DNA from: Aquimarina sp. MAR_2010_214
Lineage (GTDB): Bacteria > Bacteroidota > Bacteroidia > Flavobacteriales > Flavobacteriaceae
Length of the DNA stretch: 64,000 nucleotides
Assembly (NCBI RefSeq): GCF_002846555.1
Contig: NZ_PJMS01000001.1
Coordinates: 5,487,501-5,551,500 of the forward strand
Direction: 5' to 3'
Below, in pieces: positions 32,391 through 49,623 of the stretch. Within the stretch, counting starts at the first letter, position 1. Every line of letters begins with the position of its first letter. The translations under genes were made by a program, and so were the position numbers. Below the pieces are notes generated by a model. It was not told the origin of the DNA, searched no databases, and worked only from the letters and a program-made list of their open reading frames with translations.

Positions 32391-32434
32391 CAAACGGATG
32401 TATGTGTAATATTGCACATATAACAGTGTTAGGC
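32391..32434 (+). repeat. attC-like site at the left edge of the array
   Basis: TATGTG (32401) and CACATA (32415-32420) form an inverted repeat, followed by AACAGTG|TTAGGC with the presumed crossover between 32428 and 32429. The preceding GTACAAAC could be the first box. It is the 5' border of the first cassette, whose leading bases TTAGGCATA return as complement at 33389-33396. Confidence 0.6.
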
Positions 32435-32449
32435 ATAATCAAAAAACAA

Positions 32450-33412
32450 ATGAAGTACGGAATCTATACAATCGAAAGTCAAATACTCCACTCCGAATAT
32501 TATTCTGAAAACCCTAGCTTATTTTTGAAAAGAAATGCAATTTTATTTGACAAGTTAGTTATAGCAGATGGTAGTGAAATTTATGGTTTTGATAAACTCC
32601 ATTACTTAAATGGTGCTTCAAAAGAAGTTATAAAGAATAAAGCTGACCTTGAAAAAATATTACTTTCTATTAAGGATTTTATAAGTGATGACAACAATAA
32701 AAAACCTATCAATGAGCAACCCAAGCACGAAGACTCTATGTGGGGAGGAGAAAACTCAAGTGATTATATTGAATTTGTATCTGATTATTATTTGAAAAAA
32801 GTTGGAAAAAGCTCTATATCGAAATTAGGAAGATATGAATATAAAGAGTTAAAAGGATACATTGGTGGTATTTCCAATGATTTTCAAACTTTATCTCTAG
32901 CTAATGAAATATCTAAAGATTTCTCAGCTTTATTTTCTGAAATTCACGAAAAAGCATTTAGACATACATATCAAAATGAAAAGAGGTTTGATAAAGGTGA
33001 CGTTATTAGAGAAATAGAAAAAATTAATTTTATCGATTTTGGAGGCTTATCTTGGGATGAAATAATCATTTTAAGAAAATCTGAATTTATAAAAGACTTT
33101 AGGCTTAAAATATTTGATTGGACGACAGACTTCTTAAAAACGAAAGATGTAGAGAAATTTCAATCCGATTTAAATAAATTTATAAATGACGCAAAATTTG
33201 ACTTCATTGACAGAAAAAAACCAAACCTAAAAAAGACCTCTATTTTAGGTATTTTAGGAAATATTCCATTACCAATTCCTGTTAACCCCATAAGTTTAGC
33301 AAATAGTGCTAAAGAAATTCGAGATGATATTAAAATAAAAAAAGATTTTGACTGGTTATTTTTTATACAAAAAGCGTATAAGATGACTATGCCTAACAAT
33401 GACTATAATTAA
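32450..33412 (+). CDS. cassette gene of unknown function
   Basis: The product from ATG 32450 is a 320-residue soluble protein, MKYGIYTIESQILHSEYYSE, rich in charged helices, with one hydrophobic stretch (TSILGILGNIPLPIPVNPIS). An upstream ATG at 32402 lies inside the palindromic site and is rejected. No family is recognised and there is no signal peptide. The last seven codons (MPNNDYN) are formed by the first bases of the following attC-like site, so the ORF runs into the repeat. First cassette of the array. Confidence 0.7.
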   Translation: MKYGIYTIESQILHSEYYSENPSLFLKRNAILFDKLVIADGSEIYGFDKLHYLNGASKEVIKNKADLEKILLSIKDFISDDNNKKPINEQPKHEDSMWGGENSSDYIEFVSDYYLKKVGKSSISKLGRYEYKELKGYIGGISNDFQTLSLANEISKDFSALFSEIHEKAFRHTYQNEKRFDKGDVIREIEKINFIDFGGLSWDEIIILRKSEFIKDFRLKIFDWTTDFLKTKDVEKFQSDLNKFINDAKFDFIDRKKPNLKKTSILGILGNIPLPIPVNPISLANSAKEIRDDIKIKKDFDWLFFIQKAYKMTMPNNDYN

Positions 33413-33584
33413 TACGGGTTTTGGTGCTTTACTCAAAGTTTGGGTATATTCACGAAGTCCGCCAAATCTTTTGATTTGGCTTTACACAAAAAAGATAAAA
33501 CAAAATAAAAAGTTTTGGCTAAGTGATTAATCGAAAGTTCACTACTTTTAATTCCCGCACTAACCATAGCCGAGACGTTGTAAG
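33391..33584 (+). repeat. long attC-like palindrome 1
   Basis: It starts ATGCCTAAC and ends GACG|TTGTAAG (crossover 33577/33578). The left arm CTATAATTAATACGGG pairs imperfectly with CCCGCACTAACCATAG near the right end, and inside lies the hairpin CCAAATC/GATTTGG. A paralogue is at 38383-38630. The first box is the complement of the 5' end of the cassette it closes (32429). Confidence 0.72.
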
Positions 33585-33602
33585 TAATCTAATAATCCCA
33601 AA

Positions 33603-34286
33603 GTGAAATTTAATTCGTTAATAATACTTTTTCTTTCACTTTTTCTTTTTAGTTGTTCTAAAAAGGAAACTGTAGAAAAGGAAAATAAAAAAATAGAAAT
33701 CTATCTTACGAATAAAAGAATTTTAAATGCTAATTCAATAATAGCTACTAAATCTGATTCATTAATAAAGTACATAAAACAGAATGTTCCTGAAAAAGAT
33801 TTCAATTTTTTTATGAGTAGATACGTGACTAAAGAATGGGATACAATCCAAAATAATATAGCTCCTAAGGGAAAATTTATTGCTACAAAAATTGATTTAA
33901 ATAAGAATCCTATTGTTTACGATTCAGAAATAGGGAACTTCAATGTACAAAAAGGTGAGTTAAGAATAAGTAAAAGTGGACTTGATAGAATAATAAAAAA
34001 CCTAGACAGAAAGTATATTTGGGATGGTCAACAGTACGTTATAACCTATGGTGGAAAACCAATATTTACGGGGTATTTTGTTTCAAGTTTAAGTAGCTCC
34101 CTTGTAAATTGGTATTCAACCTATCATTTTCATTCCGATTTATCGAAAGGAGATTTTGAATTAGCAACTCCATTTAAAATAGATCAATGTTACTGTTTAT
34201 TGGAAGATAGAGAATTAATCCCCAATTTAAAGTCTAATAAAAAACTAATCGAAGCCTTTCACCAAACAGATAGGTTAACTAAATAA
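33603..34286 (+). CDS. cassette-borne lipoprotein of unknown function
   Basis: A 227-residue protein with lipoprotein signal (LSLFLFSCSK). The mature part has a Lys/Glu-rich start and then mixed alpha/beta segments (KYIWDGQQYVITYGGKPIF, VNWYSTYHFHSDL). No family recognised. It is the only gene of the cassette 33578-34358 and has no visible promoter of its own, so expression would depend on readthrough or on an unseen promoter. Confidence 0.7.
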   Translation: MKFNSLIILFLSLFLFSCSKKETVEKENKKIEIYLTNKRILNANSIIATKSDSLIKYIKQNVPEKDFNFFMSRYVTKEWDTIQNNIAPKGKFIATKIDLNKNPIVYDSEIGNFNVQKGELRISKSGLDRIIKNLDRKYIWDGQQYVITYGGKPIFTGYFVSSLSSSLVNWYSTYHFHSDLSKGDFELATPFKIDQCYCLLEDRELIPNLKSNKKLIEAFHQTDRLTK

Positions 34287-34295
34287 TAACAACTA

Positions 34296-34367
34296 CTTAC
34301 AACAATTTGTATATTGCATATGCCGCCTTCGGTAGGCAAACGCAACATACAAGAGACGTTGTAATAC
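34296..34367 (+). repeat. attC-like palindrome 2
   Basis: CTTACAAC (34296-34303) opens the site and GACG|TTGTAATAC closes it (crossover 34358/34359). TTGTATATTGC pairs with GCAACATACAA, while bases such as GAGA on the right side remain unpaired, as in the asymmetric stems of attC. The terminal loop carries GCCGCCTTCGGTAGGC. Confidence 0.78.
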
Positions 34368-34433
34368 ATTTTGCTCGTCCTAAAGATTTACGAAATAGAC
34401 CAGACAAAATTTCTTTAGATTTTATTTTAAATT

Positions 34434-35453
34434 ATGCTAAAAAAAACATACATAGTCACTTTCTACTTAATCATCAATCTTTTTTGTAGTTGTCATATTT
34501 GCTTCTCTCAAATCATAGAGTATAATCCTGAAGACAACATATATGACCTTAAAATTAATCGTGGCTATTTACATAGCGTTAAAGGAAATGTAAAAAATTT
34601 AATCACTAAATTGTATGTATATGATTATAATTCTAATGAATATAAAGAATCTTCAATTAGATACCCTGAAGGGTATAGACCATCCAAGTATAGTTTAGAC
34701 AAAGAAGGGAATATTATAGAAAGAGTATTTTTAGGCACCTATGCATACTACTACAGAAATTCAAAAAAACATAAAATTGACTCTAAAAAGACAAATGTCC
34801 TTAATAGAGTTTGGAATAAAGTAATAAAAACAGAAAAAATAGAGGAAGAAGATTTTAGATGGGATTATTATTTTGGTAAAGAAATAAAGATGAGTCTTTT
34901 TGACAAGTATGGTATTATTTATGAAAGAAACAAAAATAATATAGATGTCTATTTTCTAGAATATAAAAACAAACATTTATTTGATAAAAAAGGCAATATA
35001 GATAAAGATAACCATTTAGTATCAAAAGAATTACAATATAGGATTGAATATAATATACATGGAAAAATTAAAAAATTCGAGAACCTTAATGATAATAAGA
35101 TGATTCATTATTATACTTATGACAAAAACAACAATCTAATACGTGAAGACATATATCATTACAGTAATAATGAGTTTTATGAATTTGAAATGAAAACATT
35201 CTTATTAAATGCCAAAAATGATGTTACCAAAAAAAATGTATATAAAGCATATATAAAAGAGAACCCTTTTGATGAAAGTACAATGCTAAAAATGTTCATT
35301 AATCTTATAAGTGACAAAAAAATACCTTCTAAGTTAAAGTATGATAATAATGAATTTGAATATGAGTATGAATATGATAAATATGATAATTGGACGACTA
35401 AATTCTATCAATATAGAGCTAGTAAAATAGTTAGAAAATTAGAATATCATTAA
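34434..35453 (+). CDS. cassette-borne secreted protein with YD-like repeats
   Basis: A 339-residue protein with a signal region (YIVTFYLIINLFCSC), which could be cut as a lipoprotein or by signal peptidase I after CFSQ. The mature protein is Tyr/Asn/Lys-rich and has short units such as YTYDKNNNLIREDIYHY and LQYRIEYNIHGKIKKFENL, resembling degenerate YD or wall-associated repeats. Function unknown. It is the single gene of cassette 34359-35520 and is very A/T-rich. Confidence 0.7.
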   Translation: MLKKTYIVTFYLIINLFCSCHICFSQIIEYNPEDNIYDLKINRGYLHSVKGNVKNLITKLYVYDYNSNEYKESSIRYPEGYRPSKYSLDKEGNIIERVFLGTYAYYYRNSKKHKIDSKKTNVLNRVWNKVIKTEKIEEEDFRWDYYFGKEIKMSLFDKYGIIYERNKNNIDVYFLEYKNKHLFDKKGNIDKDNHLVSKELQYRIEYNIHGKIKKFENLNDNKMIHYYTYDKNNNLIREDIYHYSNNEFYEFEMKTFLLNAKNDVTKKNVYKAYIKENPFDESTMLKMFINLISDKKIPSKLKYDNNEFEYEYEYDKYDNWTTKFYQYRASKIVRKLEYH

Positions 35454-35475
35454 GATAAAATAAAAGAAATAAAAC

Positions 35476-35528
35476 GTATTACAACAATTTGTATAATGCA
35501 TATGCATTATACAAGAGCCGTTAGGCAC
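35476..35528 (+). repeat. attC-like palindrome 3 (most symmetric)
   Basis: GTATTACAAC (35476-35485) opens the site. A perfect 26-bp palindrome spans 35489-35514 (TTGTATAATGCAT and its complement). The site ends GCCG|TTAGGCAC (crossover 35520/35521). The left box belongs to the upstream cassette (5' end TTGTAATAC) and the right box to the downstream one, so the site is a hybrid as in integron arrays. Confidence 0.8.
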
Positions 35529-35552
35529 AAGCACAAAATACTCAAACGAAAA

Positions 35553-36272
35553 ATGAATCCAAAACAAAAATTAGAATCTATTTTAGGTAATGAGTATGAA
35601 TCTGAAAACGGAGATTTATATAAAATACAGTTGTTGGATGGAATGACAAACAAAGAAATTTCAGAATACAAAAAACAGCTTCCAAATAATCATCTTCCAT
35701 CAGAAATAGAAGAACTCTTGAAGTTTAGTATAGGATTTGATTTTTATGGATTAGAAGCAGTGAGATTTGATACCTATGGCCAATTTGGCTTTGAAGAAAT
35801 GTTCCCTAATTCAATTCCACTTACAGGAGATGAATTTGGCAATTTTTGGATTCTAGACATCGATAAAAAAGGAAATTGGAATTCAGTATATTATGTTTGC
35901 CATGACCCAGCAGTTATTGTTAAACATTCTGAGAATTTAAGCGAATTTATTGAGCAAATTCACGAATTTATAAAAAAAGAAAACGAATCAGTTCTTAATA
36001 TAATTCACAAAAAAACAGTAATGGAAATTTGGACTGAAAAAGTCGGAATAATGGAAAGAAATGAAAAGGATTATAAGTTTGAGAATGCGCAAGTTGATTT
36101 ACCAGAAATATTTTTGGTAGCAGATTTAACCGACCAACCAATTAAAACTGGATTCCCTTGGGGTAAATCTGGTGCGAATACTAAAATAATAAGACCATCA
36201 GATAAACCGATTTGGATTGTGGAGAAAAAAGTAAAACAAGGGTTTTTATCGAGGTTATTGGGGGGAAAATAA
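35553..36272 (+). CDS. SMI1/KNR4 (SUKH) family protein
   Basis: The start at 35553 (MNPKQKLESILGNEYESENG) is chosen because the ATG at 35496 lies inside the attC-like palindrome. The N-terminal part has the SUKH pattern: GMTNKEISEYKKQLPNNHLP, EIEELLKFSIGFDF, and later LTGDEFGNFWILDID. SUKH proteins commonly act as immunity proteins against contact-dependent or secreted toxins, but no toxin lies next to it. 239 residues, single gene of cassette 35521-36365, a cargo type frequent in integrons. Confidence 0.78.
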   Translation: MNPKQKLESILGNEYESENGDLYKIQLLDGMTNKEISEYKKQLPNNHLPSEIEELLKFSIGFDFYGLEAVRFDTYGQFGFEEMFPNSIPLTGDEFGNFWILDIDKKGNWNSVYYVCHDPAVIVKHSENLSEFIEQIHEFIKKENESVLNIIHKKTVMEIWTEKVGIMERNEKDYKFENAQVDLPEIFLVADLTDQPIKTGFPWGKSGANTKIIRPSDKPIWIVEKKVKQGFLSRLLGGK

Positions 36273-36277
36273 AGCCA

Positions 36278-36370
36278 GTGCCTAACACTATAAAAAAAAT
36301 TGCTGATAAAAGCCTACTTACGAACTTTAGCGCTTAAAACACGCAACTTTCCTTACACAAACACGTCGGC
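36278..36370 (+). repeat. attC-like site 4, degenerate right half
   Basis: GTGCCTAAC (36278-36286) is the exact complement of the 5' end TTAGGCAC of the cassette it closes. The right end, ACACG|TCGGC, departs from GTTRxxx and no long stem is visible, so this site looks decayed. Confidence 0.5.
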
Positions 36371-36464
36371 ATTAATAAAAAATCAATCATTTCTAAATTC
36401 GCATTTAATGAAAATTTGAAAATACTTATTTTCACTATTCCAATTAATTGAAAATATAAAATAT

Positions 36465-36472
36465 TATATTTG
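36465..36472 (+). promoter_or_regulatory. -7 element upstream of the Fic gene
   Basis: TATATTTG at 36465-36472 is a perfect TAnnTTTG box 23 bp before the Fic start. The best TTG upstream (36448-36450) is only 14 nt away, shorter than usual, so the -33 part is weak. It suggests that this cassette gene has its own promoter. Confidence 0.55.
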
Positions 36473-36495
36473 TGTTTTAGCTAAAAAATAAAATT

Positions 36496-37641
36496 ATGGA
36501 TTTAAATGATTTCATTTCTGGAAAGCACATTAAACAAATAGAATATAAATCATTTTCCCCTGAGAAAATTAATCACGAATGGATTGTATCAACTCCCGAA
36601 GTGAATAAATTATTATCAGAAGCAAATAGACTAATCGGAGAATTGAATGCTTTTTCACAGATTATTCCTGATGTTGATTTCTTTATTACAATGCATATTC
36701 TAAAAGAGGCAACAACTTCTAGTAGAATTGAAGGAACAAAGACAAATATGGAGGAAGCCCTAGTTAAAGAAGAAGATATCAATCCTGAAAAAAGAGATGA
36801 TTGGGCAGAGGTACAAAATTATATAAAAGCAATTAACATCTCAATAAAAGAATTAGAAAAACTACCTATTTCAAGCCGACTTATAAGGAATACCCATAAA
36901 ATAATTCTCTCTGGAGTAAGAGGAAAGCATAAAATGCCAGGTGAGTTTAGGACAAGTCAAAACTGGATAGGAGTAACATTAAAAGATGCTATTTTTATTC
37001 CTCCGCATCATTCAGAAGTAATTGAATTAATGAGTGACTTAGAAAAATTTATTAATGATCAAGAGAATCATATTCCTCACTTAATAAAAATAGCAATTGC
37101 ACATTATCAATTTGAAACAATTCATCCATTTCTAGATGGTAATGGTCGACTTGGCAGACTTTTAATTACACTTTATTTAGTTAGTAATGATGTGTTAAAG
37201 AAACCATCTCTTTACTTATCTGATTTTTTTGAAAAAAATAAAGGGTATTACTATGATAATTTAATGACTGTGCGTCTTACAAGTAATTTAACACAATGGG
37301 TTAAGTTTTTCTTAGTTGGTGTTATCGAAACTTCGAAAGAATCAATACAAGTGTTTAAAGATATTATAGCCTTGAAGAATAACATTGAAACAGTAAGATT
37401 ACCTAAATTAGGAAGTAAGATTAAAAATGGTCAACTATTAATGAAACAACTTTTTCAAATACCAATTATAGATTCAAAACAAGTTTCAGAACTATTACAA
37501 ATTTCAGCATCAACTGCGAATAGGTTAATTAAAGATTTAATCGATCTGGAAATATTGACAGAACTAACAGGCTACAAACGGAATAGAAAGTTCATGTTTA
37601 AAGAATATTTTAAAATATTTCATGCGGAAACAAAAAACTAA
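36496..37641 (+). CDS. Fic family protein
   Basis: The 381-residue protein carries the Fic active-site motif HPFLDGNGRLGR with its His at residue 210; Fic enzymes usually transfer AMP from ATP to target hydroxyls. An N-terminal inhibitory helix motif SSRIEG (Ser75 to Gly80) fits class II self-inhibited Fic. The C-terminus is a winged-helix-like domain (QVSELLQISASTANRLIKDL), common in Fic_N-Fic-wHTH proteins. It lies within the cassette array but has a promoter-like box of its own. The target is unknown. Confidence 0.93.
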   Translation: MDLNDFISGKHIKQIEYKSFSPEKINHEWIVSTPEVNKLLSEANRLIGELNAFSQIIPDVDFFITMHILKEATTSSRIEGTKTNMEEALVKEEDINPEKRDDWAEVQNYIKAINISIKELEKLPISSRLIRNTHKIILSGVRGKHKMPGEFRTSQNWIGVTLKDAIFIPPHHSEVIELMSDLEKFINDQENHIPHLIKIAIAHYQFETIHPFLDGNGRLGRLLITLYLVSNDVLKKPSLYLSDFFEKNKGYYYDNLMTVRLTSNLTQWVKFFLVGVIETSKESIQVFKDIIALKNNIETVRLPKLGSKIKNGQLLMKQLFQIPIIDSKQVSELLQISASTANRLIKDLIDLEILTELTGYKRNRKFMFKEYFKIFHAETKN

Positions 37642-37659
37642 AGACAACAAATAATGCAT

Positions 37660-37701
37660 AATTCCCCATATAAAGAAACTCTATTAATTTCTATTGCTAA
37701 C
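37660..37701 (+). repeat. non-coding element, copy A
   Basis: A 42-nt stretch (AATTCCC to GCTAAC) matches 39583-39624 at 36 of 42 positions by hand alignment, without gaps. Both copies lie directly before an attC-like stem ending in G|TTAGTCAGAATT. It may be part of a gene-free mini-cassette. Confidence 0.65.
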
Positions 37702-37745
37702 ATCATTAAAAAAAGAATAGGAATTGAGCGAATTTTTGGGAAGAT

Positions 37746-37796
37746 TGACTAAACCCTAAACAACTAAATATTAAAATAATAATTTGACGTTAGTCA
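37746..37796 (+). repeat. attC-like palindrome 5
   Basis: TGACTAA (37746-37752) and TTAGTCA (37790-37796) are complementary, and inside them AAATATTA faces TAATAATTT. The site ends GACG|TTAGTCAGAATT with the crossover at 37789/37790. It is the 5' border of the cassette with the gene at 37807. Confidence 0.6.
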
Positions 37797-37806
37797 GAAT
37801 TCAAAA

Positions 37807-38376
37807 ATGAGAACACATTTAATAATTATAATTGTATTAATACTTAATTTACATTCCTTTGCTCAAACAAATAAAAAAAATGACAATGGAAAATTTTATA
37901 CAATTAAAGGGTTAATTACTGATAAAAACTCTAAGGACACTTTACACCTTGTAATTGTTGAATTTATGAATAAAGAAAATAAACTGATTAAAGCAATGCG
38001 ATCAGATTTTGACGGAATTTATTATTCATCTATCTGTTCGAAAGAATTAATAGACGATAGCCTTCTAATTAAAACTACGAACGCATTTTACAAACAGGAG
38101 GTTTTTAATTATAAAATAGTTTCTGATACAATTATTAATATCAATATGGATTCGGATAGTAACAAAACATTTTCAAAAGAAAAATTTGAAGAATATAATA
38201 GGCTCAGAATGTATGGTCGCGGATGTGGTTTAGTTGATGATGACGAATATGATGAACTAGAATACCAAAGGAACCTAAAAACTTACAAGCATTATTGTAC
38301 TGGACAGATAAAAAAATATAGAAGTTTGATTGATGATAATGCAATTTTTTCAGAATGGATACTAATAGAAAAATAA
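37807..38376 (+). CDS. cassette-borne secreted protein with carboxypeptidase-regulatory-like domain
   Basis: A 189-residue protein with a signal peptide (HLIIIIVLILNLHSFAQ). The next 90 residues resemble a carboxypeptidase D regulatory-like fold (YTIKGLITDKNSKDTLHLVI, SDFDGIYYSSI), common in Bacteroidota secreted proteins. The C-terminal tail is acidic (VDDDEYDELEYQ) and then basic. Function unknown. It is the single gene of its cassette. Confidence 0.65.
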   Translation: MRTHLIIIIVLILNLHSFAQTNKKNDNGKFYTIKGLITDKNSKDTLHLVIVEFMNKENKLIKAMRSDFDGIYYSSICSKELIDDSLLIKTTNAFYKQEVFNYKIVSDTIININMDSDSNKTFSKEKFEEYNRLRMYGRGCGLVDDDEYDELEYQRNLKTYKHYCTGQIKKYRSLIDDNAIFSEWILIEK

Positions 38377-38382
38377 AACTAT

Positions 38383-38630
38383 GCCTAACACGATGTCCTA
38401 TAATTAATACGGTTTTTGGCGCTTAACCCAAAGTTTAGGGTTTTAAACTAAGTCCGCCAAATCTTTTGATTTACGACTTTGTTTTTATTTCATATTTTTG
38501 GTAGTCGTAGTCCTTAGGTGGGCATTATAAAGAAAAAGCTAAAACAGAATAAAAAGTTTTGGCTAAGTGCTTAATCAAAAGTTCACTACTTTTAATTCCT
38601 GCACTAACCATAGCCGGAACATTGTAAAAC
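38383..38630 (+). repeat. long attC-like palindrome 6, paralogue of palindrome 1
   Basis: It shares with 33391-33584 the segments TATAATTAATACGG, CCGCCAAATCTTTTGATTT, AAAAAGTTTTGGCTAAGTG and GCACTAACCATAGCCG in the same order. An extra stretch of about 60 nt (around 38466-38530) occurs in the middle. It ends GGAACA|TTGTAAAAC (38621/38622), with A instead of the usual G. Confidence 0.7.
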
Positions 38631-38647
38631 ATAATGAGAATCAAATT

Positions 38648-39157
38648 TTGAAAAAATATTTAACCTTATTTGTAATTTTAATCTCTGTATGGGTGACTAA
38701 TAGCCAAAATGAAAAATCTCACAGAGAATCGTTTGATTTGACTGTTGCTATAGACACTATAAATTTTTACAAACAAAAAATTGATAAAACCCCCTATTTT
38801 GTTAAGGAAAATGTTTTACAAATTTACCCAACAGAAAAGATAAATATCGAAGTTGAAATATCAAAAGATAGTATCATAGCAATGAAAGTTGTGAAAGAAA
38901 ACCTTAATCCGGAAAAGACTATTGTACTTGAATTTAAACAGGAAGTAAAAAACCAAAAAAGTGAAAGGATGATGCTTACCATAACAAATCCTTTTGAAAA
39001 AACACTTACATATGATGCTCATATGTTTATTGTAGGGCACGATAAATGGATTTCAACAAGTATAATACCAATTCTTCCTAAATTGACCAACTTTGAGATG
39101 TGGAATGATATTATTCTTTCTTTAGTTTTAGAAAATTGGAAATTAACAACTAAGTAA
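38648..39157 (+). CDS. cassette-borne secreted protein, probable TTG start
   Basis: The frame has no ATG where a signal peptide begins. TTG at 38648 gives KKYLTLFVILISVWVTNSQ, a convincing signal, and is taken as the start (169 residues). The GTG at 38567 lies inside the preceding attC-like palindrome. The mature part is beta-rich (VEISKDSIIAMKVVKENLNP) with no family recognised. Its cassette starts TTGTAAAAC, and the complement GTTTTACAAC lies 5 nt after its stop, directly before the next gene. Confidence 0.62.
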   Translation: MKKYLTLFVILISVWVTNSQNEKSHRESFDLTVAIDTINFYKQKIDKTPYFVKENVLQIYPTEKINIEVEISKDSIIAMKVVKENLNPEKTIVLEFKQEVKNQKSERMMLTITNPFEKTLTYDAHMFIVGHDKWISTSIIPILPKLTNFEMWNDIILSLVLENWKLTTK

Positions 39158-43084: not shown

Positions 43085-43699
43085 ATGACGAACAGTATTT
43101 TTCATAACAAAGAATTTAAAATAAATGGAATTTCTATTCCTGAATTTGAATTGAAAAATGGAAATCTAATCCGAATATACATCCCAAATTTTGATGCCAA
43201 AAACTTGCCTTTAGGTTTTGACTTGGCTATTGAATTAATTAAACGTTTTCAAAATCAAAAAACCGATTTTCCATGGGCAAAAAACTACCGACAGCATACA
43301 GTTATGGAATTATTAAACTCTTTGACTGTTAATAAATATCTGATCAATAAAATGCGAATTGATAAATCGAAGGCGAAAAAAATTGCAGAAGAAATCGGAA
43401 TTAGTTTAAAGGATAAATTCGAGCATTTGAGTTTTACTAATAGAAAAGCACTAATTATAAAAGCTCTTTTTGATAAAAATGATAGTGTGATTTTAGATTA
43501 TTACGGAGTAGATGCTAACGGAATTAGATTTTTGGAAAGGTTAGTGAATTCCGAAATTGAAAATGATAAATCTGCTATTGCATTTGATAGATTTGAATTT
43601 AAAGCCAATCAAGAACCATTTCAAAATATTATCCCGATAGAAATAAAAAACTGTATCCAACACGATATATGTGACCATAACAAGCAGTTAGAGTTTTAA
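43085..43699 (+). CDS. cassette protein resembling the C-terminal half of an ABC ATPase
   Basis: The ATG at 43085 is preferred over the GTG at 43073, which lies in the attC-like end. The 204-residue product is soluble. The order TVNKYLINKMRI, then IGISLKDKFEHLSFTNRKAL, then DSVILDYYGVDANG resembles the signature and Walker B parts of ABC ATPases (LSGGQ..., LLDEPTNGLD). There is no P-loop and the expected DE is DY, so it cannot be an ordinary ATPase. The similarity is an inference from motif order and may be coincidental. Confidence 0.6.
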   Translation: MTNSIFHNKEFKINGISIPEFELKNGNLIRIYIPNFDAKNLPLGFDLAIELIKRFQNQKTDFPWAKNYRQHTVMELLNSLTVNKYLINKMRIDKSKAKKIAEEIGISLKDKFEHLSFTNRKALIIKALFDKNDSVILDYYGVDANGIRFLERLVNSEIENDKSAIAFDRFEFKANQEPFQNIIPIEIKNCIQHDICDHNKQLEF

Positions 43700-43828
43700 T
43701 CCAATGGTTGTTGTATTTTCACAAAGGCACAATGCTTGCAAAAATAAAAAGTTAGCAATCAATGTACAGAAAAATCGAAAAGCAAGATAAGTGCTATTAC
43801 AAGAAAATTAGCTGTAATAATTTGGACT

Positions 43829-43975
43829 ATGAGTACTAAAAAAGCTCCTTATCAACCCTCAACTGATTTCTTATTCTTAGATCAGAAACGAAAACTTAAA
43901 ATGATAAACAGAATTAAAAAACATATCGCCAAATTTAAACTTAATCTCGAAAAACCAGAAGAAATAACTAATTGA
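43829..43975 (+). CDS. small basic protein, 48 residues
   Basis: An ORF MSTKKAPYQPSTDFLFLDQK continuing with many Lys and Arg (KMINRIKKHIAKFKLNLEK) and ending EEITN. It lies in an otherwise gene-free interval between two cassette genes, and its last codons fall in a palindromic end (ACTAAT at 43967, ATTAGT at 43997). No family recognised. It could be the cargo of a small cassette whose 5' border is unclear (perhaps G|TTAGCA at 43752/43753). Confidence 0.45.
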   Translation: MSTKKAPYQPSTDFLFLDQKRKLKMINRIKKHIAKFKLNLEKPEEITN

Positions 43976-44009
43976 TAGTCAAAACAAGTAATTGACATTA
44001 GTCAGAATT
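43967..44009 (+). repeat. attC-like site 11 (weak)
   Basis: ACTAAT and ATTAGT flank TTGATAGTCAA-type repeats, and the site ends GACA|TTAGTCAGAATT at 43997/43998. The leading TTAGTCA is shared with three other cassette starts. Confidence 0.45.
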
Positions 44010-44027
44010 AAACTCACAATTATTAAA

Positions 44028-44246
44028 ATGAATGAAATAATAAGGCAAAAAATAATTAATATTTGTAATGAAAAAATTGAGAAAAAAGGAACAGGTGTTG
44101 GGCTTTCATTTTATGCTTTTTTCGCCAATAAAAACGATAACCCAAAACTATTAATGGAAGTTGCAGAGTGGTGGATTATGAAACATAAACTTGACCATTT
44201 TGAAAAAGCAATTAAAATCAGAGAAATGGTCCAAAACAAATTGTAA
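44028..44246 (+). CDS. small protein, DUF6500-like
   Basis: The 72-residue product reads MNEIIRQKIINICNEKIEKK, then GVGLSFYAFFANKNDNPKLL and WWIMKHKLDHFEKAIKIREM. I recall this pattern from the short DUF6500 family of unknown function; the assignment is tentative. The in-frame start at 43992 lies in the junction and is rejected. Its stop overlaps the start of the next gene (TAATG), which indicates coupled translation within a two-gene cassette. Confidence 0.65.
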   Translation: MNEIIRQKIINICNEKIEKKGTGVGLSFYAFFANKNDNPKLLMEVAEWWIMKHKLDHFEKAIKIREMVQNKL

Positions 44247-44800
44247 TGACTAAAAGACTTAAAATTTTAGGGATTAATGGAAGTGCAAGCCAAAATTCTT
44301 CGAACCTTTCCATTTTAAATAAAATTGCCGAACTCGGAAAATCCCAATTTGATTTGAATATAATTGACGACTTGACCGAATTACCACATTTTAAAACGGA
44401 ATTGACAGATAACAATGTTCCCGAAAAAATAATTGAATTTCGTAATCAAATTGAAAATGCAGACGGAATCATAATCTGTACACCTGAATATGTTTTTAGT
44501 ATCCCAAGCGGGCTTAAAAATGCAATTGAGTGGTGTGTTTCGACTGCGGTATTTTCTGACAAGCCAATTGGACTGATTACAGCTTCTGCAAGTGGTGAAA
44601 AAGGACACGAGGAATTGAAACTAATAATGAAAACAGTTCAAACAAATTTCACAGACGAGACTACGCTTCTGATACAAGGAATTAAAGGTAAAATAAATAA
44701 TAGTGGGGAGATTTTGGATGATAACACGAAAAATCAATTAGAGAAATTTGTACAGTCGTTTAATAGATTAAATGAAAAGTCTACAGGTAACACGGCATAG
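44246..44800 (+). CDS. NAD(P)H-dependent FMN reductase family protein
   Basis: A 184-residue flavodoxin-like oxidoreductase. The FMN phosphate-binding loop GINGSASQNSSN is near the N-terminus, and TPEYVFSIPSGLKNAIEW is the family's central signature, followed by DKPIGLITASASGEKGHEE. It should reduce FMN, quinones or azo compounds with NAD(P)H in the cytoplasm. The start overlaps the previous gene's stop. The last codons (GNTA) are formed by the palindromic site that follows. Confidence 0.92.
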   Translation: MTKRLKILGINGSASQNSSNLSILNKIAELGKSQFDLNIIDDLTELPHFKTELTDNNVPEKIIEFRNQIENADGIIICTPEYVFSIPSGLKNAIEWCVSTAVFSDKPIGLITASASGEKGHEELKLIMKTVQTNFTDETTLLIQGIKGKINNSGEILDDNTKNQLEKFVQSFNRLNEKSTGNTA

Positions 44801-44880
44801 TACATTTATTTCCTTCACGAAGCATACGCATTATACAAAAGACTCCAGACTGTCTAAAAACCAATAGAAGATTATGCCAT

Positions 44881-45538
44881 AAAACAATAGAATTAAAAAA
44901 GTCTGTAGTTGACGCTCAACAAATAATGAGCATCATAAATCATGCATATGTTCCTAAGGAATCAAAGAGAATATTAATGAAGTTCAAGATATATGTAATA
45001 AACTAGATTCACTTGTTTTAGCTGCTAAAACTAAAACAGAATCTAATTTAAATCGAATTGCTCCTAAACAAATAGATATTGCCAAAATATTCTTATCCGA
45101 AAACCCTATAAGTTATTATGATTGCATTAATGATCCAGATTCTACAATTACTCTAAAAAACCATCCTCTAAAAAAGAAATCGAAAATTCACAACTCAATG
45201 ACATCCCTTTTTCGGAGATTATGTTAAAGGATGACTCAAGCCTGTTAAAATTATCCGAACATACTTCTTCATTTTTGGATTCTTTAAAATTTCATAAGCT
45301 CAAAAAATTATCAACCTTAAATTTAAGAGAAAATAGTTTAGACTATCTACCTTTCAATTTAACAAAATTAAATAAAATTGAATATTTGAATTTAAACAAA
45401 AATAGTATCGAAAAAACACCAAATAACCTTGATGGTTTTAGTAGACTAAAGTATTTAGATCTAAGAAATAACTTTTTTGATAAAACCGAAAAAGAAAGAA
45501 TCAATAGTATCTCGACTGAGACTGAAATACTATTTTGA
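44881..45538 (+). pseudogene. frameshifted leucine-rich-repeat gene
   Basis: The last part, from 45221, is an open frame with LRR units (LKKLSTLNLRENSLDYLPFN, LNKIEYLNLNKNSIEKTPNN, FSRLKYLDLRNNFF). Upstream, protein-like stretches continue in other frames: TIELKKSVVDAQQIMSIINH (from about 44886), IKENINEVQDICNKLDSLVL (44960-45150) and KKEIENSQLNDIPFSEIM leading into the LRR frame. At least two frameshifts separate them, with no start codon in place. I read it as a decayed gene; the intact protein would have been roughly 210 residues. Confidence 0.6.
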
Positions 45539-45547
45539 ATAATATTT

Positions 45548-45581
45548 GCCAACATCAAGTATGATACCATAAACGTTGAGT
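45548..45581 (+). repeat. attC-like site 12 (short, weak)
   Basis: GCCAAC opens and ACG|TTGAG closes a short stretch with the inner palindrome GTATGATAC. The crossover would be 45575/45576. A degenerate relative of the site at 40864 lies further on, at 45668-45715. Confidence 0.4.
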
Positions 45582-45608
45582 GATAACCAAAAGGTTCTTT
45601 TATATTTG
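45576..45608 (+). promoter_or_regulatory. promoter for the gene at 45724
   Basis: TTG (45576-45578) and TATATTTG (45601-45608) are spaced by 22 nt, within the accepted range for Bacteroidota promoters. It would give a leader of about 110 nt and serve the secreted-protein gene at 45724. Confidence 0.55.
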
Positions 45609-45723
45609 CTATGGCACAAAAATTTCAGAATGTAAAAGTTATAAAATCAGTGTAGAAAATATCATTGGCTTGGTAACATTTTAATCAGCTACGACACATA
45701 TTTATAAAATTACCACATATAAA

Positions 45724-46347
45724 ATGAAAACTTATATTTTACTATTAGCATCAGTTATTCAACTGAGTTCATTTTCTCAAACAAAAATTTCTGGAAAAAC
45801 TAAGTATTTTGCCAGTTATAAGTATAACTTATCTGTTCTTGATTCATTAGTAAAAAAGGAACTGTCTATTTTGAATTCTGCAAAACATACTATTGAAATA
45901 AAACAAGGATCAAAAACTTATAACACACAAACTGATTCTAAGGGTTTTTTTGAAATGCTCCTTGATAGTGAAGAACAAATATTCATTAAAGTAAATAAAG
46001 AATCCAAAGTTTCTAACTTTAATTTTATTATAGAACCTCATAAGTTTAATCGTCTAATTGAATTAAACATGACAAATACTAGAGTTGAAAGTCATATAGA
46101 CTCTATTACATCTACTAAGTTCTACAATAAATACAATTTAGGTCAAGCTTATAAAAACTTCGAGAACAAAAACTATAAACTAATTATCATAGAAAAACCA
46201 AATACTTCAAAACAAATAATCAAAAGACGAAGACGAAAAGAGAAAAGGCATAATGTAAAATATGTCCCTGAAGATATAAACTCAGTTGCTGAGCTCAGAA
46301 TGATGATTAAATATAATTCTAAGATGAAAGAATTAATCGGAATTTAA
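45724..46347 (+). CDS. cassette-borne secreted protein of unknown function
   Basis: A 207-residue protein with a signal peptide (YILLLASVIQLSSFSQ). The mature part is beta-rich at first (HTIEIKQGSKTYNTQTDSKG, a carboxypeptidase-regulatory-like segment with FFEMLLDSEEQIFIKV) and ends in a strongly basic region (IIKRRRRKEKRHNVKY). No family recognised. A promoter-like pair at 45576-45608 precedes it. Confidence 0.62.
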   Translation: MKTYILLLASVIQLSSFSQTKISGKTKYFASYKYNLSVLDSLVKKELSILNSAKHTIEIKQGSKTYNTQTDSKGFFEMLLDSEEQIFIKVNKESKVSNFNFIIEPHKFNRLIELNMTNTRVESHIDSITSTKFYNKYNLGQAYKNFENKNYKLIIIEKPNTSKQIIKRRRRKEKRHNVKYVPEDINSVAELRMMIKYNSKMKELIGI

Positions 46348-46507
46348 TACATGTGTGGCAATATATAACCTTAATTACGGAAGATCAACTGCGTCTGAAT
46401 CCACTCGGAATTTATAAGATTTATGTTTAATCCGAAAATAATAGCTAATTTAACCCGTAACTGACAATTAATAAGAATCGTATACAAAAAGCTTAACATT
46501 CATTAGA

Positions 46508-47005
46508 ATGAAATATCTAATTCAAAACATTATTCAACAATATAAAGAAGTCCAAAATGGAAAATTATGGATAGGTAGCACATTTACTAGTAAATTAAAT
46601 CAAGTTGATGAAAATATGGTTTTTAAAAGACCAATTATAGGTTTACACAGTATCGCAGAAATAATTTCCCATTTGACGTTGTGGAGAAAAGAGACCATCT
46701 TGAAAATTGAGACGGGCGAAGGAAGTAAAACAGATGATTGTGAGGAAAACTGGTTGACTAATGACAAACTGGAATTAATGGGTTGGCGATATATCAAATC
46801 AGAATATGATAAAACTCTTACAGAATTGATTAATTTACTAAAATCAAAAGATGATGAATTTCTGAATAAGGAATATTATGATACAGATTTTAAAGGCAAT
46901 TATAAGTATCGTTTTGTAATTAACGGAATGTTACATCATGATATTTATCATTTAGGACAACTTGGAATAATCATAAAATATTTAAAAGAAAACAACAATA
47001 GCTAA
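46508..47005 (+). CDS. DinB-like four-helix-bundle protein
   Basis: The 165-residue product fits the DinB/YfiT-like superfamily. It has an N-terminal helix, LHSIAEIISHLTLWRKETIL with a likely metal-binding His, and a C-terminal segment MLHHDIYHLGQLGIIIKYL with two more His. Members are metal-dependent enzymes, often thiol transferases, but the reaction here is unknown. It lies 60 bp before the ECF sigma gene; a short palindromic junction separates them. Confidence 0.85.
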   Translation: MKYLIQNIIQQYKEVQNGKLWIGSTFTSKLNQVDENMVFKRPIIGLHSIAEIISHLTLWRKETILKIETGEGSKTDDCEENWLTNDKLELMGWRYIKSEYDKTLTELINLLKSKDDEFLNKEYYDTDFKGNYKYRFVINGMLHHDIYHLGQLGIIIKYLKENNNS

Positions 47006-47020
47006 AAGTAATTGCTTGTT

Positions 47021-47053
47021 CACACAACAATTCATATTCAAGACGTTAGTCAC
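47021..47053 (+). repeat. attC-like site 13 (short)
   Basis: CACACAAC (47021-47028) opens and GACG|TTAGTCAC closes the site (47045/47046). The inner pairing of TTCATATTCAAG is weak. The 5' end TTAGTCA is shared with three other units. Confidence 0.45.
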
Positions 47054-47065
47054 AAGCATATAAAA

Positions 47066-48346
47066 ATGCCCGTAAATGAAAAGAACATATCGAACAAAAT
47101 TGATCATTTATTCAGGCATGAATACGGTAAACTTGTTTCGGTATTAACCAAAACATTTGGAACTTCAAATATTGAACTTGCTGAGGATATAGTACAAGAA
47201 GCTATGCTCGAAGCTCTAAATAGATGGACTTATAACGGAATCCCAACTAACCCTGTCGGATGGATTTACAAAGTTGCTAAAAACAAAGCAGTAAACATCC
47301 TGAACAGAGAAAAGTACAAAAGACAATATGCTTCTGACATTGCTCATCTTCTGCAATCTGAATGGACTGTAGCACCCACTCTAGAGCAAATCTTTACAGA
47401 CAAAGAAATTGCAGACGACCAACTGCGAATGATATTTACCTGCTGCAATCCTATCATTTCAAAAGATTCACAAGTTGCCCTTACCCTAAAAACTCTTTGT
47501 GGGTTTAGTATTTCGGAAATTGCAAAAGCATTTCTGACTACCGAAGAAAACATCAATAAAAGATTGGTAAGAGCAAGAAAATCAATTAAAGATGCAAATA
47601 TTTTATTTGAAGTCCCAACTGGAAGAGAATTAGAACAGAGATTATCAAGTGTTCTCGAAACTATTTATCTTCTGTTTAACGAAGGTTACAATGCAACTTC
47701 TGTCGATAACCCAATTCGTTATGAACTTTGTGAAGAATCCATTCGATTAACTGAAATTATTGCATCAAATCAGATCATAAAATCTTCTAACACATATGCT
47801 TTATTAGCGTTGATGATTTTCAATACATCAAGATTTAAATCAAGAATTGACGAATTTGATAATATTCTGGATTTGGAACATCAAGATAGAAATCAATGGG
47901 ATAAGGAATTGATAAAGAAAGGGCTTTATTATTTAGAATTTGCAACACAACAAAATGAGGTTTCCATTTATCACATTCTTGCCACAATTTCTGCCCATCA
48001 TTGTACAGCACTTGATTTTAAATCAACAGATTGGAAAAGTATTTTATCTCTATACGATATGCTCATCAAAATAGATAATTCACCCATTGTCCTACTAAAT
48101 AGAGCTATTGTTTTTTCCAAAACCGCAAGTCCCAAAAAAGCTCTTCAGCAATTAGAGAAAATAAAAGACAATTCTGTTTTTAGCTCATATTTTCCATATT
48201 ATACTACAAAGGCAACGCTTCATTTTCAAAACAAAGAGTCAAAAAAAGCTAAAAAACTCTTAGATGATGCATTAAAAAAATTCGACACAAGAAACCACAA
48301 GCACCTCATTAACAAGGTTTTGAATGATTTTTCAGGAAATATTTGA
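47066..48346 (+). CDS. ECF-type RNA polymerase sigma factor with C-terminal extension (ECF42-like)
   Basis: The ATG at 47066 is chosen; the TTG at 47012 lies before the cassette junction. Region 2 is visible in IELAEDIVQEAMLEALNRW and PVGWIYKVAKNKAVNILNR, and region 4 in LCGFSISEIAKAFLTTEENI and NKRLVRARKSI. A 230-residue helical C-terminal extension (DUF6596/TPR-like) follows, typical of the ECF42 group, in which the extension rather than a separate anti-sigma factor controls activity. A YCII-domain gene follows, the usual ECF42 partner. 426 residues. Confidence 0.9.
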   Translation: MPVNEKNISNKIDHLFRHEYGKLVSVLTKTFGTSNIELAEDIVQEAMLEALNRWTYNGIPTNPVGWIYKVAKNKAVNILNREKYKRQYASDIAHLLQSEWTVAPTLEQIFTDKEIADDQLRMIFTCCNPIISKDSQVALTLKTLCGFSISEIAKAFLTTEENINKRLVRARKSIKDANILFEVPTGRELEQRLSSVLETIYLLFNEGYNATSVDNPIRYELCEESIRLTEIIASNQIIKSSNTYALLALMIFNTSRFKSRIDEFDNILDLEHQDRNQWDKELIKKGLYYLEFATQQNEVSIYHILATISAHHCTALDFKSTDWKSILSLYDMLIKIDNSPIVLLNRAIVFSKTASPKKALQQLEKIKDNSVFSSYFPYYTTKATLHFQNKESKKAKKLLDDALKKFDTRNHKHLINKVLNDFSGNI

Positions 48347-48434
48347 TTTTTTTTAAGATTCAATGTCCTTTTTGCTTCCTTTCATTTGACTATTAGATAT
48401 AAAACAATTTTCAAAAAAATTAAATGAACAAATT

Positions 48435-48791
48435 ATGCAAGAATTTATGATTTTTATCAAAACCAAAGGCGACCATTTGGCAAGCCTTTCGCCAGAACAA
48501 CAACAAGCCCACGTACAGAAAATCGGGAAATACATAGGTGGTTTAATGGACTCAGGAAAACTAAAAGGTGCACAACCGTTGGAAATGGGTGGAGCTGTAA
48601 TTCACGGTAACAAAGGTGTTTTTAAAGACGGACCTTTTAACGAATCGAAGGAAGTGATTGTAGGCTATTTCCACATTGTGGCTAAAAACTTAGAAGAGGC
48701 TATTGAAATTGCAAAAGCAAACCCAGTGTTTGACGATTCTGAAGGTTCAATTGAAGTAAGACCTATTAAACAAATGGACGGTATCAACTAA
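48435..48791 (+). CDS. YCII-related (DGPF) domain protein
   Basis: A 118-residue protein with the YCII fold and the DGPF motif (GVFKDGPFNESKEVIVGYFH), followed by AIEIAKANPVFDDSEGSIEV. These proteins are the standard genomic neighbours of ECF42 sigma factors and are their probable targets; the biochemical role is not established. It lies 88 bp after the sigma gene and 10 bp before the next gene, so all are probably in one transcript. Confidence 0.92.
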   Translation: MQEFMIFIKTKGDHLASLSPEQQQAHVQKIGKYIGGLMDSGKLKGAQPLEMGGAVIHGNKGVFKDGPFNESKEVIVGYFHIVAKNLEEAIEIAKANPVFDDSEGSIEVRPIKQMDGIN

Positions 48792-48801
48792 AAAAAACCA
48801 T

Positions 48802-49011
48802 ATGAACTCAGGAAATAAAGACAAAACAGTAGCGTACAGTGGGCATTGTGCTTTTGCCGTTAGCACAGGAAAAATAGATATTAAAGGAGGCAAACACAGC
48901 CTGACGATTGAAGGAAAAACTTATCTATTTTCAAATCCGATAGCCAAGTTTTTATTCAAATTGATACCCAATCGAATTGAAAAGGCAGATATCAACTGGA
49001 AAAACAAATAA
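48802..49011 (+). CDS. short YHS-like fragment
   Basis: A 69-residue ORF with VAYSGHCAFAVSTGKIDIKG, KTYLFSNPIAKFLFKLIPNR and ADINWKNK. It resembles the second half of the YHS protein encoded next (YGGYCAFAVSTG, then LYLFDGKS and CGMNWK). It lacks the N-terminal part and a signal peptide and may be a shortened duplicate or a minimal domain. It ends one base before the next start. Confidence 0.6.
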   Translation: MNSGNKDKTVAYSGHCAFAVSTGKIDIKGGKHSLTIEGKTYLFSNPIAKFLFKLIPNRIEKADINWKNK

Positions 49012-49012
49012 A

Positions 49013-49483
49013 ATGAAAAAAAGAACTAAAATAATATTACTATCACTCGTAGCAATAGTCGCTTTTATTTTCATTTTTGCAAAAGCAAACCGTATTTCAC
49101 CATTATCTTGGGGGCACAAGGAAGTTAATCAATCAATGTTTTCAAACGAAGCCGCCAATGGCTATGATGTCGTTGCCTACTTTACAGAAAACAAAGCTAT
49201 AGTTGGTAATGAAACCTATTCCTTCAATTGGAAAAATGCAGATTGGTTTTTTTCATCAGAAGAAAACAAAAGTTTGTTCATTCAAAATCCAGAAAAATAT
49301 ACTCCGCAGTATGGTGGTTATTGTGCCTTTGCCGTAAGTACCGGGTTTACAGCGAATACAGATCCGAATTCTTTTGAGATTATTGATGATAAATTATACC
49401 TTTTTGATGGAAAAAGTGTGAAAACAGATTGGAAAAAAAATCTAAAAGAAAATTTGCAAAAATGTGGAATGAACTGGAAATAA
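49013..49483 (+). CDS. YHS domain protein, membrane-anchored
   Basis: The start at ATG 49013 gives an N-terminal membrane helix (IILLSLVAIVAFIFIFAKAN) and 156 residues. The YHS-type domain shows GYDVVAYFTENKAIVGNETY, WFFSSEENKSLFIQNPEKYT and YGGYCAFAVSTG. YHS domains bind metals in some proteins; here only one Cys of the usual motif is present. It is the last gene of the sigma-factor unit and may be controlled by that sigma factor. Confidence 0.8.
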   Translation: MKKRTKIILLSLVAIVAFIFIFAKANRISPLSWGHKEVNQSMFSNEAANGYDVVAYFTENKAIVGNETYSFNWKNADWFFSSEENKSLFIQNPEKYTPQYGGYCAFAVSTGFTANTDPNSFEIIDDKLYLFDGKSVKTDWKKNLKENLQKCGMNWK

Positions 49484-49489
49484 TACGGT

Positions 49490-49623
49490 CTACAACACTG
49501 TAAAAAATAATAGCGACTTTGATACTTAATCTAAAGTCGCTTTTTTATATTTATGGTCAGTCTTAAAACAGAAAGATTAGTGTTTCAAAAAACTACTATT
49601 ACTTTTATACTAAACTGTTGTCA
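49490..49623 (+). repeat. attC-like palindrome 14 with internal terminator-like hairpin
   Basis: CTACAAC (49490-49496) opens and CTG|TTGTCA closes the site (49617/49618). The arm TAAAAAATAATAG pairs with CTATTACTTTTA near the right end. Inside, GCGACTTT (49513-49520) pairs with AAAGTCGC (49533-49540) followed by six T, a good intrinsic terminator. Confidence 0.65.

What the first reader, a model, noticed from the sequence alone, without database searches (positions are those of the whole stretch)
32429..49617. Integron-like gene cassette array in a Bacteroidota chromosome
About fifteen unrelated short genes or gene pairs stand in one orientation, each followed by an imperfect palindrome ending G|TTRxxx. 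The layout, hybrid sites, gene-free units and cargo types (GNAT, SMI1/KNR4, DinB, Fic, oxidoreductase) match integron cassettes, but the boxes (TTACAAC/GTTGTAA, GCCTAAC/GTTAGGC) are wider than the classical RYYYAAC/GTTRRRY, and no integrase lies here. It may be an orphan attC cluster or a related system with its own recombinase.
Basis: partly seen in the sequence, partly recalled or inferred. Interest (0 to 1): 0.92.

Follow-up and report, generated by a model that had tools for sequence, protein, structure and literature searches.

The report
Integron-like cassette system of Bacteroidota
A marine bacterium carries a row of swappable genes cut at hairpin sites like those of integrons, and the enzyme that probably moves them is not the known integron enzyme but a relative found next to similar gene rows in many Bacteroidota.

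Summary
The array is real. Its first three units start G|TT-N7-AT and end AC-N7'-AAC, N7' being the exact reverse complement of N7; a fourth pairs over 9 bp. N7 differs between units. In 19 Aquimarina stretches (347 kb) the rule gives 71 pairs forward, 5 reverse. Models of the excised sites fold better on the bottom strand in 25 of 27, with attC-like spacers and bulges. The genome has no IntI over cut-off but two copies of a 375-residue XerA-like recombinase, each followed on the same strand by an attI-like site and an array. A rule-type cassette begins right behind relatives of this gene in 28 of 93 loci, behind 0 of 30 IntI and 0 of 46 more distant homologues. It lacks the IntI insertion. 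In class Bacteroidia IntI is in 1 of 295 genomes, this family in 146. The window array sits at a recombinase-less attI-like site and is partly decayed; the same place is empty in four relatives. Verdict: an integron-like system with a non-IntI recombinase. Recombination is inferred, not shown.

The parts
32350..32430 (+). attI-like site without a recombinase: imperfect palindrome TATGTGTAATATTGCACATA (32401-32420) then AACAGTG|TT
   Evidence: 79% and 75% identical DNA stands in two other Aquimarina genomes, again followed by GTT; further copies dispersed in the genus; same layout as the site behind the recombinase genes
32429..33577 (+). cassette 1: one ORF (ATG near 32451, stop 33412, no Pfam family); R'' 33386-33397; long site to G33577
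   Evidence: 12-bp rule perfect; no Pfam hit for the ORF called from 32402
33578..34358 (+). cassette 2: ORF 33603-34286; R'' 34292-34303; 78-nt site
   Evidence: rule perfect; folds with central spacer, bottom strand favoured
34359..35520 (+). cassette 3: ORF 34434-35453; R'' 35474-35485; short site
   Evidence: rule perfect; spacer homology to an attC-like site of another genome
35521..36370 (+). cassette 4: SMI1/KNR4 ORF; R'' 36275-36286 (9-bp match, 6 of 7 in N7)
   Evidence: its 3' boundary is not clean, end set by eye
36371..37788 (+). Fic unit, degenerate boundaries, ending ..GACG|TTAGTCAGAATTC
   Evidence: Fic_N and Fic domains; boundary read by eye
37789..38621 (+). unit with ORF 37807-38376; R'' ACTATGCCTAAC 38378-38389; long site
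   Evidence: R'' is 2 of 7 off its own start; site homologous to one in array A
38622..39172 (+). cassette with ORF ending 39157; start A|TTGTAAAACAT, R'' 39161-39172
   Evidence: complementarity perfect, first base A instead of G
39173..42940 (+). units with a 115-aa ORF, an alpha/beta hydrolase, and a B12/radical-SAM protein plus membrane protein; site at 40827-40890
   Evidence: (76.6% to an attC-like spacer), Pfam
42941..45711 (+). units with a 208-aa ORF, an FMN reductase and an LRR protein; sites at 42994-43039, 43662-43790, 45556-45707
   Evidence: (81-82% identity each), Pfam
45712..50300 (+). units with a 207-aa ORF, DinB, ECF sigma/DUF6596 + YCII + YHS-like genes, GNAT; site at 50162-50259
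   Evidence: boundaries mostly degenerate
50339..52429 (-). S41 peptidase gene, opposite strand, within the inserted segment
   Evidence: Pfam PF03572; the stretch is missing from the syntenic place in relatives
32157..52961 (.). whole segment absent in relatives between a thioredoxin-like gene and a class II (D, K and N) aminoacyl-tRNA synthetase gene
   Evidence: alignment ends leave 94, 94, 2 and 17 bp in G002, G004, G031, G019; 1.47 kb in G026 and G029; 3.1 kb in G001

Best explanation
The window holds a recombinase-less, partly decayed array of an integron-like gene-cassette system. A cassette is one gene, sometimes two, plus one recombination site. SHOWN from sequence: (1) each intact cassette carries its own pair of boxes, GTT-N7-AT at its start and AC-N7'-AAC before its hairpin, so the two halves make one folded site when the cassette is a circle. 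(2) The sequence of N7 is largely free; the pairing is kept. (3) Such sites fold better on the bottom strand, largely because A.C mismatches of the top strand are T.G pairs on the bottom; a small central spacer follows the R stem and, in 11 of 27, a single extra base stands on the R''-L'' arm. (4) A XerA-like 375-aa tyrosine recombinase lies directly upstream of an attI-like palindrome and a first cassette, on the same strand. [quoted passage not shown] Recombinase-less attI copies such as W 32350-32430 are served in trans, by the copies at 4.10 and 4.91 Mb or by a lost one with a matching palindrome.
For: Own-start complementarity in a chain; 71 forward against 5 reverse in 347 kb. Test free of the rule: of 148 site ends found by spacer homology alone 144 have AAC, followed by A in 144 of 144; of the 94 not in the rule-based set, 17 pair 7/7 and 69 at least 6/7 with an upstream start, against 3.9% and 26% in the control (split by my subtraction). 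Folding: bottom better in 25 of 27, random windows 46 of 135; G-T pairs 106 bottom, 37 top; C before G|TT in 27 of 27; central spacer in 25 of 27, single extra base at stem position 24-27 in 11 of 27. Recombinase + attI-like site + array twice in the same genome. First cassette within 400 bp on the same strand in 28 of 93 loci, 0 of 30 IntI, 0 of 46 distant homologues. Palindrome then GTT behind the gene: 18 of 28 Aquimarina, 14 of 59 other family loci, controls 2 of 29 and 3 of 46. Motif residues of a tyrosine recombinase invariant in 25 rows. Species comparison.
Against: No recombination event was observed. The right half of the window array is mostly degenerate. The attI-like palindrome of the window differs from that behind the two recombinases of this genome, so which enzyme served it is unknown. 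Only 15 of 62 ends of homologous segments between arrays carry a shared GTT within 10 bp (inner control 5.6%). Of 13 family loci among the named ones with 5 kb or more downstream, 5 (L116, L123, L126, L141, L162) show no perfect cassette, and in 26 further loci 4 do. The mismatch at R-box position 11 is not paired in the predicted folds: all counted G-T pairs are inner. The 11 sites with an extra base are mostly of one site family, so not independent. The AF2 model has pTM 0.50, and by TM-score IntI4 (0.53/0.62) fits it better than XerA (0.43/0.57), though XerA has the better E-value.
Confidence: 0.85

Rival explanations
1. An ordinary IntI integron remnant (CALIN) with diverged attC sites, brought in from another lineage; the XerA-like recombinase is a bystander.
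For: GCCTAAC/GTTAGGC fits the classical boxes; site layout (central spacer, extra-helical base, AAC-G on the bottom strand) is that of attC (PMC2727003 passages). True IntI is common elsewhere in the GTDB phylum: 105 of 395 genomes over cut-off.
Against: No IntI over cut-off in this genome, 1 of 295 in the class. The 12-bp rule gives 1 pair on 12 strands of 40 kb around six true IntI genes. The recombinase is directly followed by rule-type cassettes in distant families.
Confidence: 0.08
2. A cassette-like set of passive elements moved by another enzyme (HUH single-strand transposase, or the many tandem tyrosine recombinase pairs of this genome).
For: Hairpin-bounded units and single-strand folding also occur in IS200/IS605-type elements (recalled); the genome has many paired tyrosine recombinases.
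Against: None of the paired recombinases lies in arrays A, B or the window, while the XerA-like gene stands at the head of A and B and of arrays in other genomes. Boundaries are own-box pairs around a variable N7, not fixed ends. HUH genes were not searched for, and the surroundings of the paired recombinases were not scanned.
Confidence: 0.04
3. A stable tandem of accessory genes with repeated intergenic hairpins (terminators or REP-like), never mobile.
For: Right half is degenerate; no movement seen within one species.
Against: Unit-specific pairing of start and end 0.4-4.7 kb apart has no evident role in termination. Empty and one-unit loci in relatives. A cassette in Aquimarina and one in Seonamhaeicola match from GTT to GTT in different array positions.
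Confidence: 0.03

Closest known systems
Sedentary chromosomal integron (IntI, attI, attC, cassettes)
   Same: array of mostly one-gene cassettes in one orientation, a tyrosine recombinase gene and an attI beside it; folded sites with R stem, unpaired central spacer, L stem, in part an extra-helical base, variable loop; bottom strand favoured; G|TT boundary; AAC followed by G on the bottom strand
   Different: recombinase without the IntI insertion (median 89 against 131 residues between box I and box II) and with an extra N-terminal alpha/beta domain; recombinase gene on the same strand as the cassettes; complementary boxes of 10 with largely free N7; several recombinase-less attI-like copies per genome
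CALIN (attC cluster without integrase)
   Same: the window array has no recombinase beside it
   Different: it keeps an attI-like site, and the enzyme elsewhere in the genome is not IntI; the standard attC covariance model was not run
XerA (archaeal Xer) and NCBIfam NF040815 recomb_XerA_Arch
   Same: catalytic domain: 220.1 bits against cut-off 220; best solved structures by sequence are the archaeal Xer 4a8e and XerA 5hxy, then IntI4 2a3v
   Different: N-terminal domain of about 100 residues; linked to cassette arrays, not to one dif-like site
Treponema denticola integron (recalled)
   Same: integrase gene on the same strand as the cassettes (recalled)
   Different: has a true IntI (recalled, not tested here)

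Membership tests
Integron (IntI-based) | integrase with the IntI-specific insertion around patch III (PMC9668308 passages) | tested here: not met
   box I to box II 89-94 residues in 28 cassette-linked recombinases, 103-131 in 27 measurable of 30 IntI, 81-96 in 19 measurable of 20 Xer-like; TIGR02249 187.1 bits, cut-off 265
Integron (IntI-based) | recombinase falls in the IntI clade | tested here: not met
   IntI one side of a branch with 100 support, cassette-linked rows another with 81 (131 rows) or 93/51 (59 rows). But one common clade of both is not rejected: p-AU 0.508
Integron (IntI-based) | attI beside the integrase gene | tested here: met
   palindrome with arm of 7 or more followed by GTT within 15 bp in 18 of 28 Aquimarina and 14 of 59 other family loci, 2 of 29 IntI and 3 of 46 distant controls, so clear in Aquimarina, weaker outside; different sequence after GTT behind nearly identical sites in copies A and B
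Integron (IntI-based) | attC sites folding on the bottom strand with R, central spacer, L, extra-helical base | tested here: met
   single extra-helical base in 11 of 27 only
Integron (IntI-based) | R' box GTTRRRY | tested here: not met
   second base after GTT is a purine in 19 of 71 cassette starts
Integron (IntI-based) | tandem array of short genes in one orientation | tested here: met
   median start-to-R'' length 746 bp over 71 pairs
Integron (IntI-based) | integrase-dependent excision and insertion of cassettes | not testable with these tools
   needs an assay
CALIN | at least two attC, under 4 kb apart, no IntI nearby, by the standard attC model | not testable with these tools
   the attC covariance model is not on hand; Rfam scan of 30000-52000 gave one chance hit
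XerA / dif chromosome resolution | simple Xer recombinase acting on one chromosomal dif site | tested here: not met
   extra N-terminal domain, two copies, linked to arrays; the genome's two other Xer-like genes in the tree lie apart from it

The most novel reading that the evidence does not exclude
Bacteroidota have their own integron lineage: a XerA-like recombinase with an extra N-terminal domain that takes the place IntI has elsewhere, reads folded single-stranded sites of free sequence whose strand is marked by G-T wobbles, and feeds several dispersed attI sites per genome. It either arose apart from IntI or split from it before the IntI insertion was gained. It would also explain why a 'xerD' gene stands beside tet(X) genes.
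Probability: 0.6. Interest if true: 0.93.

Novelty: new variant of a known kind. Interest (0 to 1): 0.87.

Why it matters
Integron surveys look for IntI and classical attC sites (PMC9668308, PMC9024848, passages read), and IntI is nearly absent from the sampled class Bacteroidia (1 of 295 genomes). If this reading holds, these bacteria have a gene-capture platform that such tools would not see: 146 of the same 295 genomes carry a relative of the recombinase, named today as Xer, 'tyrosine-type recombinase' or, loosely, 'integron integrase'. It offers a second solution to single-strand site recognition to set beside IntI, and a testable account of the unexplained 'xerD' next to tet(X) (PMC7473080 and PMC7494873, passages read).

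Tried and rejected
A first chain search with loose complementarity gave chains hardly better than shuffles and is symmetric between strands; it was dropped for the 12-bp rule, which I then drew from the best pairs of the same output, hence the rule-free test. Exact 7-mer palindromes alone are no more frequent on + than on - (15 and 15 in the window, 5 and 5 in the region). Rfam gave one chance hit (mir-320, E 0.13). A linked 7-bp rule gave two linked pairs on 12 strands around six true IntI genes, so no clean classical array was at hand as a positive control. The first bulge count was wrong by an indexing error and was redone. A common clade of IntI and this family could not be rejected, so separate origin is not claimed. 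The PDB comparison of the model is not decisive. Choices made after seeing results: the cut between 'family' loci L108-L141 and 'distant' loci L142-L187 (taken together, 9 of 80 named loci have a first cassette); a few family members (L162, L171) lie in the distant set. For the 131-row tree I left out rows under 230 or over 520 residues, 20 of 30 genus loci and every second IntI locus; one row of its cassette group, L040, had no cassette seen. Literature term sets: (listings seen); no report of such arrays in Flavobacteriia or of a XerA-like cassette recombinase came up; the library is open-access PMC only, without preprints. I read passages, no whole text, of PMC9024848, PMC8138268, PMC8618304, PMC9668308, PMC7473080, PMC7494873, PMC2426708, PMC2727003.
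Full report
WHAT IS THERE. The window is bases 5,487,501-5,551,500 of a 5.98-Mb single-contig genome of the genus Aquimarina (names of near proteins). Between a thioredoxin-like gene ending at 32138 and a class II (D, K and N) aminoacyl-tRNA synthetase gene starting at 53040 lies a run of short genes, nearly all on the + strand. The first units obey a strict rule. A unit starts G|TT-N7-AT. Before its terminal hairpin it has AC-N7'-AAC, where N7' is the reverse complement of that unit's own N7. The pairs are 32428/33397, 33577/34303 and 34358/35485; 35520/36286 pairs over 9 bp with a changed end. Position 11 is an A.C mismatch, position 12 a T-A pair. N7 differs between units, so the pairing is kept and the sequence is not. 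From 36.3 kb on most boundaries are blurred, but 38621/39172 fits (first base A), and attC-like spacers of other arrays hit the window 26 times, all on + and all within 33435-50259.

CONTROLS. Over 19 stretches of Aquimarina DNA, the window among them (347,189 bases), the rule with any first base gives 71 pairs forward and 5 reverse; with G as first base 67 and 2. One of the 19 (L065) has none. On 12 strands of 40 kb around six true IntI genes it gives 1. A test free of the rule located 148 site ends by homology of the spacer alone. At the predicted place 144 have AAC, followed by A in 144 of 144. Fifty of the 144 belong to the rule-based set and pair 7/7 by construction. Of the other 94, 17 pair 7/7 and 69 at least 6/7 with an upstream start; another site's N7 at the same places gives 28 and 184 of 720 (the split is my subtraction).

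FOLDING. For 27 sites with both neighbours known I modelled the site of the excised circle. With DNA parameters the bottom strand is more stable in 25, the top in 1, one is equal; random windows of the same stretches favour the bottom in 46 of 135. Minimum-energy folds hold 106 G-T pairs on the bottom strand and 37 on the top, none of them in the R boxes; many A.C mismatches of the top are T.G pairs of the bottom. The mismatch at position 11 of the R box, though conserved, is not paired in these folds: all 27 form 10 of the 12 R pairs. In 25 of 27 the first interruption is a small asymmetric spacer of 2-4 against 0-2 nt; in 11 of 27 a single extra base then stands on the R''-L'' arm at stem position 24-27 (counted by me from its list; these are mostly one family of sites). 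The base before G|TT is C in 27 of 27, so the bottom strand reads AAC-G. PMC2727003 (passages) says that this base is a G in most attC sites.

THE RECOMBINASE. No protein of the genome passes the integron-integrase cut-off. The best hits are two copies of a 375-residue tyrosine recombinase at 4.10 and 4.91 Mb. Copy A is followed on the same strand by TAATAGCAATTGCTATTACAACATTGTT and then many same-strand genes with rule-type pairs; copy B has the same site but another array. Thirty-seven of 52 Aquimarina genomes have it (E up to 1e-60). Behind the gene stands a palindrome, different in sequence between lineages, then GTT: 18 of 28 Aquimarina loci and 14 of 59 other family loci, against 2 of 29 IntI and 3 of 46 distant controls. 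A rule-perfect cassette begins within 400 bp after the gene, on its strand, in 28 of 93 loci (6 of 30 in the genus, 9 of 34 named loci L108-L141, 13 of 29 across the phylum), in 0 of 30 IntI loci and in 0 of 46 more distant homologues L142-L187 (the cut between the named sets was made after seeing the hits), and in 4 of 26 further class loci. Many stretches held only 1.5 kb downstream, so these are lower bounds; but 5 of 13 family loci with 5 kb or more have none. Examples: Winogradskyella, Seonamhaeicola, Zunongwangia, Rufibacter, Aquiflexum, Alkalitalea.

IS IT INTI? No. The distance from box I to box II is 89-94 residues in 28 cassette-linked proteins, 103-131 in IntI and 81-96 in Xer-like proteins, so the IntI insertion is missing. 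NCBIfam places it at the edge of XerA (220.1 bits, cut-off 220; TIGR02249 187.1, cut-off 265). An AF2 model (pLDDT 80.5, pTM 0.50) shows an extra N-terminal alpha/beta domain. Foldseek ranks XerA first by E-value, IntI4 third but with the higher TM-score. In a tree of 131 rows, 34 rows labelled cassette-linked stand on one side of a branch (support 81) and IntI on another (100); 33 of the 34 have a cassette seen. A tree holding both together as one clade is not rejected (p-AU 0.508), so common or separate origin is open.

DISTRIBUTION. IntI over cut-off: 105 of 395 genomes of the GTDB phylum but 1 of 295 in the class. The new family at E up to 1e-60: 146 of 295 in the class; not all of these need be linked to cassettes. 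Plasmids of Bacteroidota carry relatives too.

MOVEMENT. In four Aquimarina relatives the flanking genes of the window array are joined by 94, 94, 2 and 17 bp between alignment ends. In two they are 1.47 kb apart, in one of which I read one gene and an attC-type 3' half; in another 3.1 kb. A cassette of Aquimarina (first behind attI) and one of Seonamhaeicola (inside an array) match at 73% from GTT to GTT. A cassette inside an array of one species matches one behind a recombinase-less attI here from its GTT on. Over 31 homologous segments, a shared GTT lies within 10 bp of 8 right and 7 left ends, 5.6% at inner places.

THE WINDOW ARRAY. W 32350-32430 is one of six such places in this genome. 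Of the five others, read, three are followed by GTT-N7-AT and two are blurred. So the array is best seen as cassettes captured at a dispersed attI and partly decayed since. Which recombinase served it is unknown, since its palindrome is nearer by eye to that of other species than to copies A and B.

LIMITS. No recombination was seen. The standard attC model could not be run. Novelty rests on ten open-access full-text searches without preprints.

Noticed in passing
L271 (plasmid pHH1107) 5043-7064; L272 (Acinetobacter indicus plasmid): An N-terminally short relative of the recombinase stands 190 bp before tet(X3). In L271 an attI-like palindrome and a box GTTATGTGCCAT lie between them; no perfect R'' box follows. 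Papers note 'xerD' beside tet(X) without explanation.
   Followed up: partly
G000:C1 4271195, 4273392, 4276104, 2868714, 5555124: Dispersed attI-like sites without a recombinase beside them; three of the five are followed by GTT-N7-AT, and three lie within 5 kb of each other.
   Followed up: partly
G000:C1 1868268-1888466, 3134495-3142482, 5142864-5173030, 5771215-5787634: Many tandem pairs of tyrosine recombinases (about 310 + 311 residues), several with identical scores; their surroundings were not examined.
   Followed up: no
L026 (copy B) about 980-1310, opposite strand: A small Zn-ribbon-like protein gene on the opposite strand just before the recombinase in copy B (and in copy A, whose upstream DNA is 94% identical over the held part), by eye also in some other Aquimarina loci.
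   Followed up: no
L024/L025 (array A) and L026 (array B): A 351-residue transposase-like ORF (looks like IS110, recalled) on the opposite strand sits twice in array A and once in B, in copies 99-100% identical.
   Followed up: no
L273 (Flagellimonas plasmid) 11017-12792: erm(F) lies directly upstream of a 'xerA' recombinase of this family; no rule-perfect pair in the stretch.
   Followed up: no
window 50339-52429: S41 peptidase gene on the opposite strand inside the segment missing from relatives.
   Followed up: no
L274 (Chryseobacterium plasmid) 13288-21968: A plasmid-borne relative of the recombinase followed by two rule-type pairs on its strand, one with first base A.
   Followed up: partly
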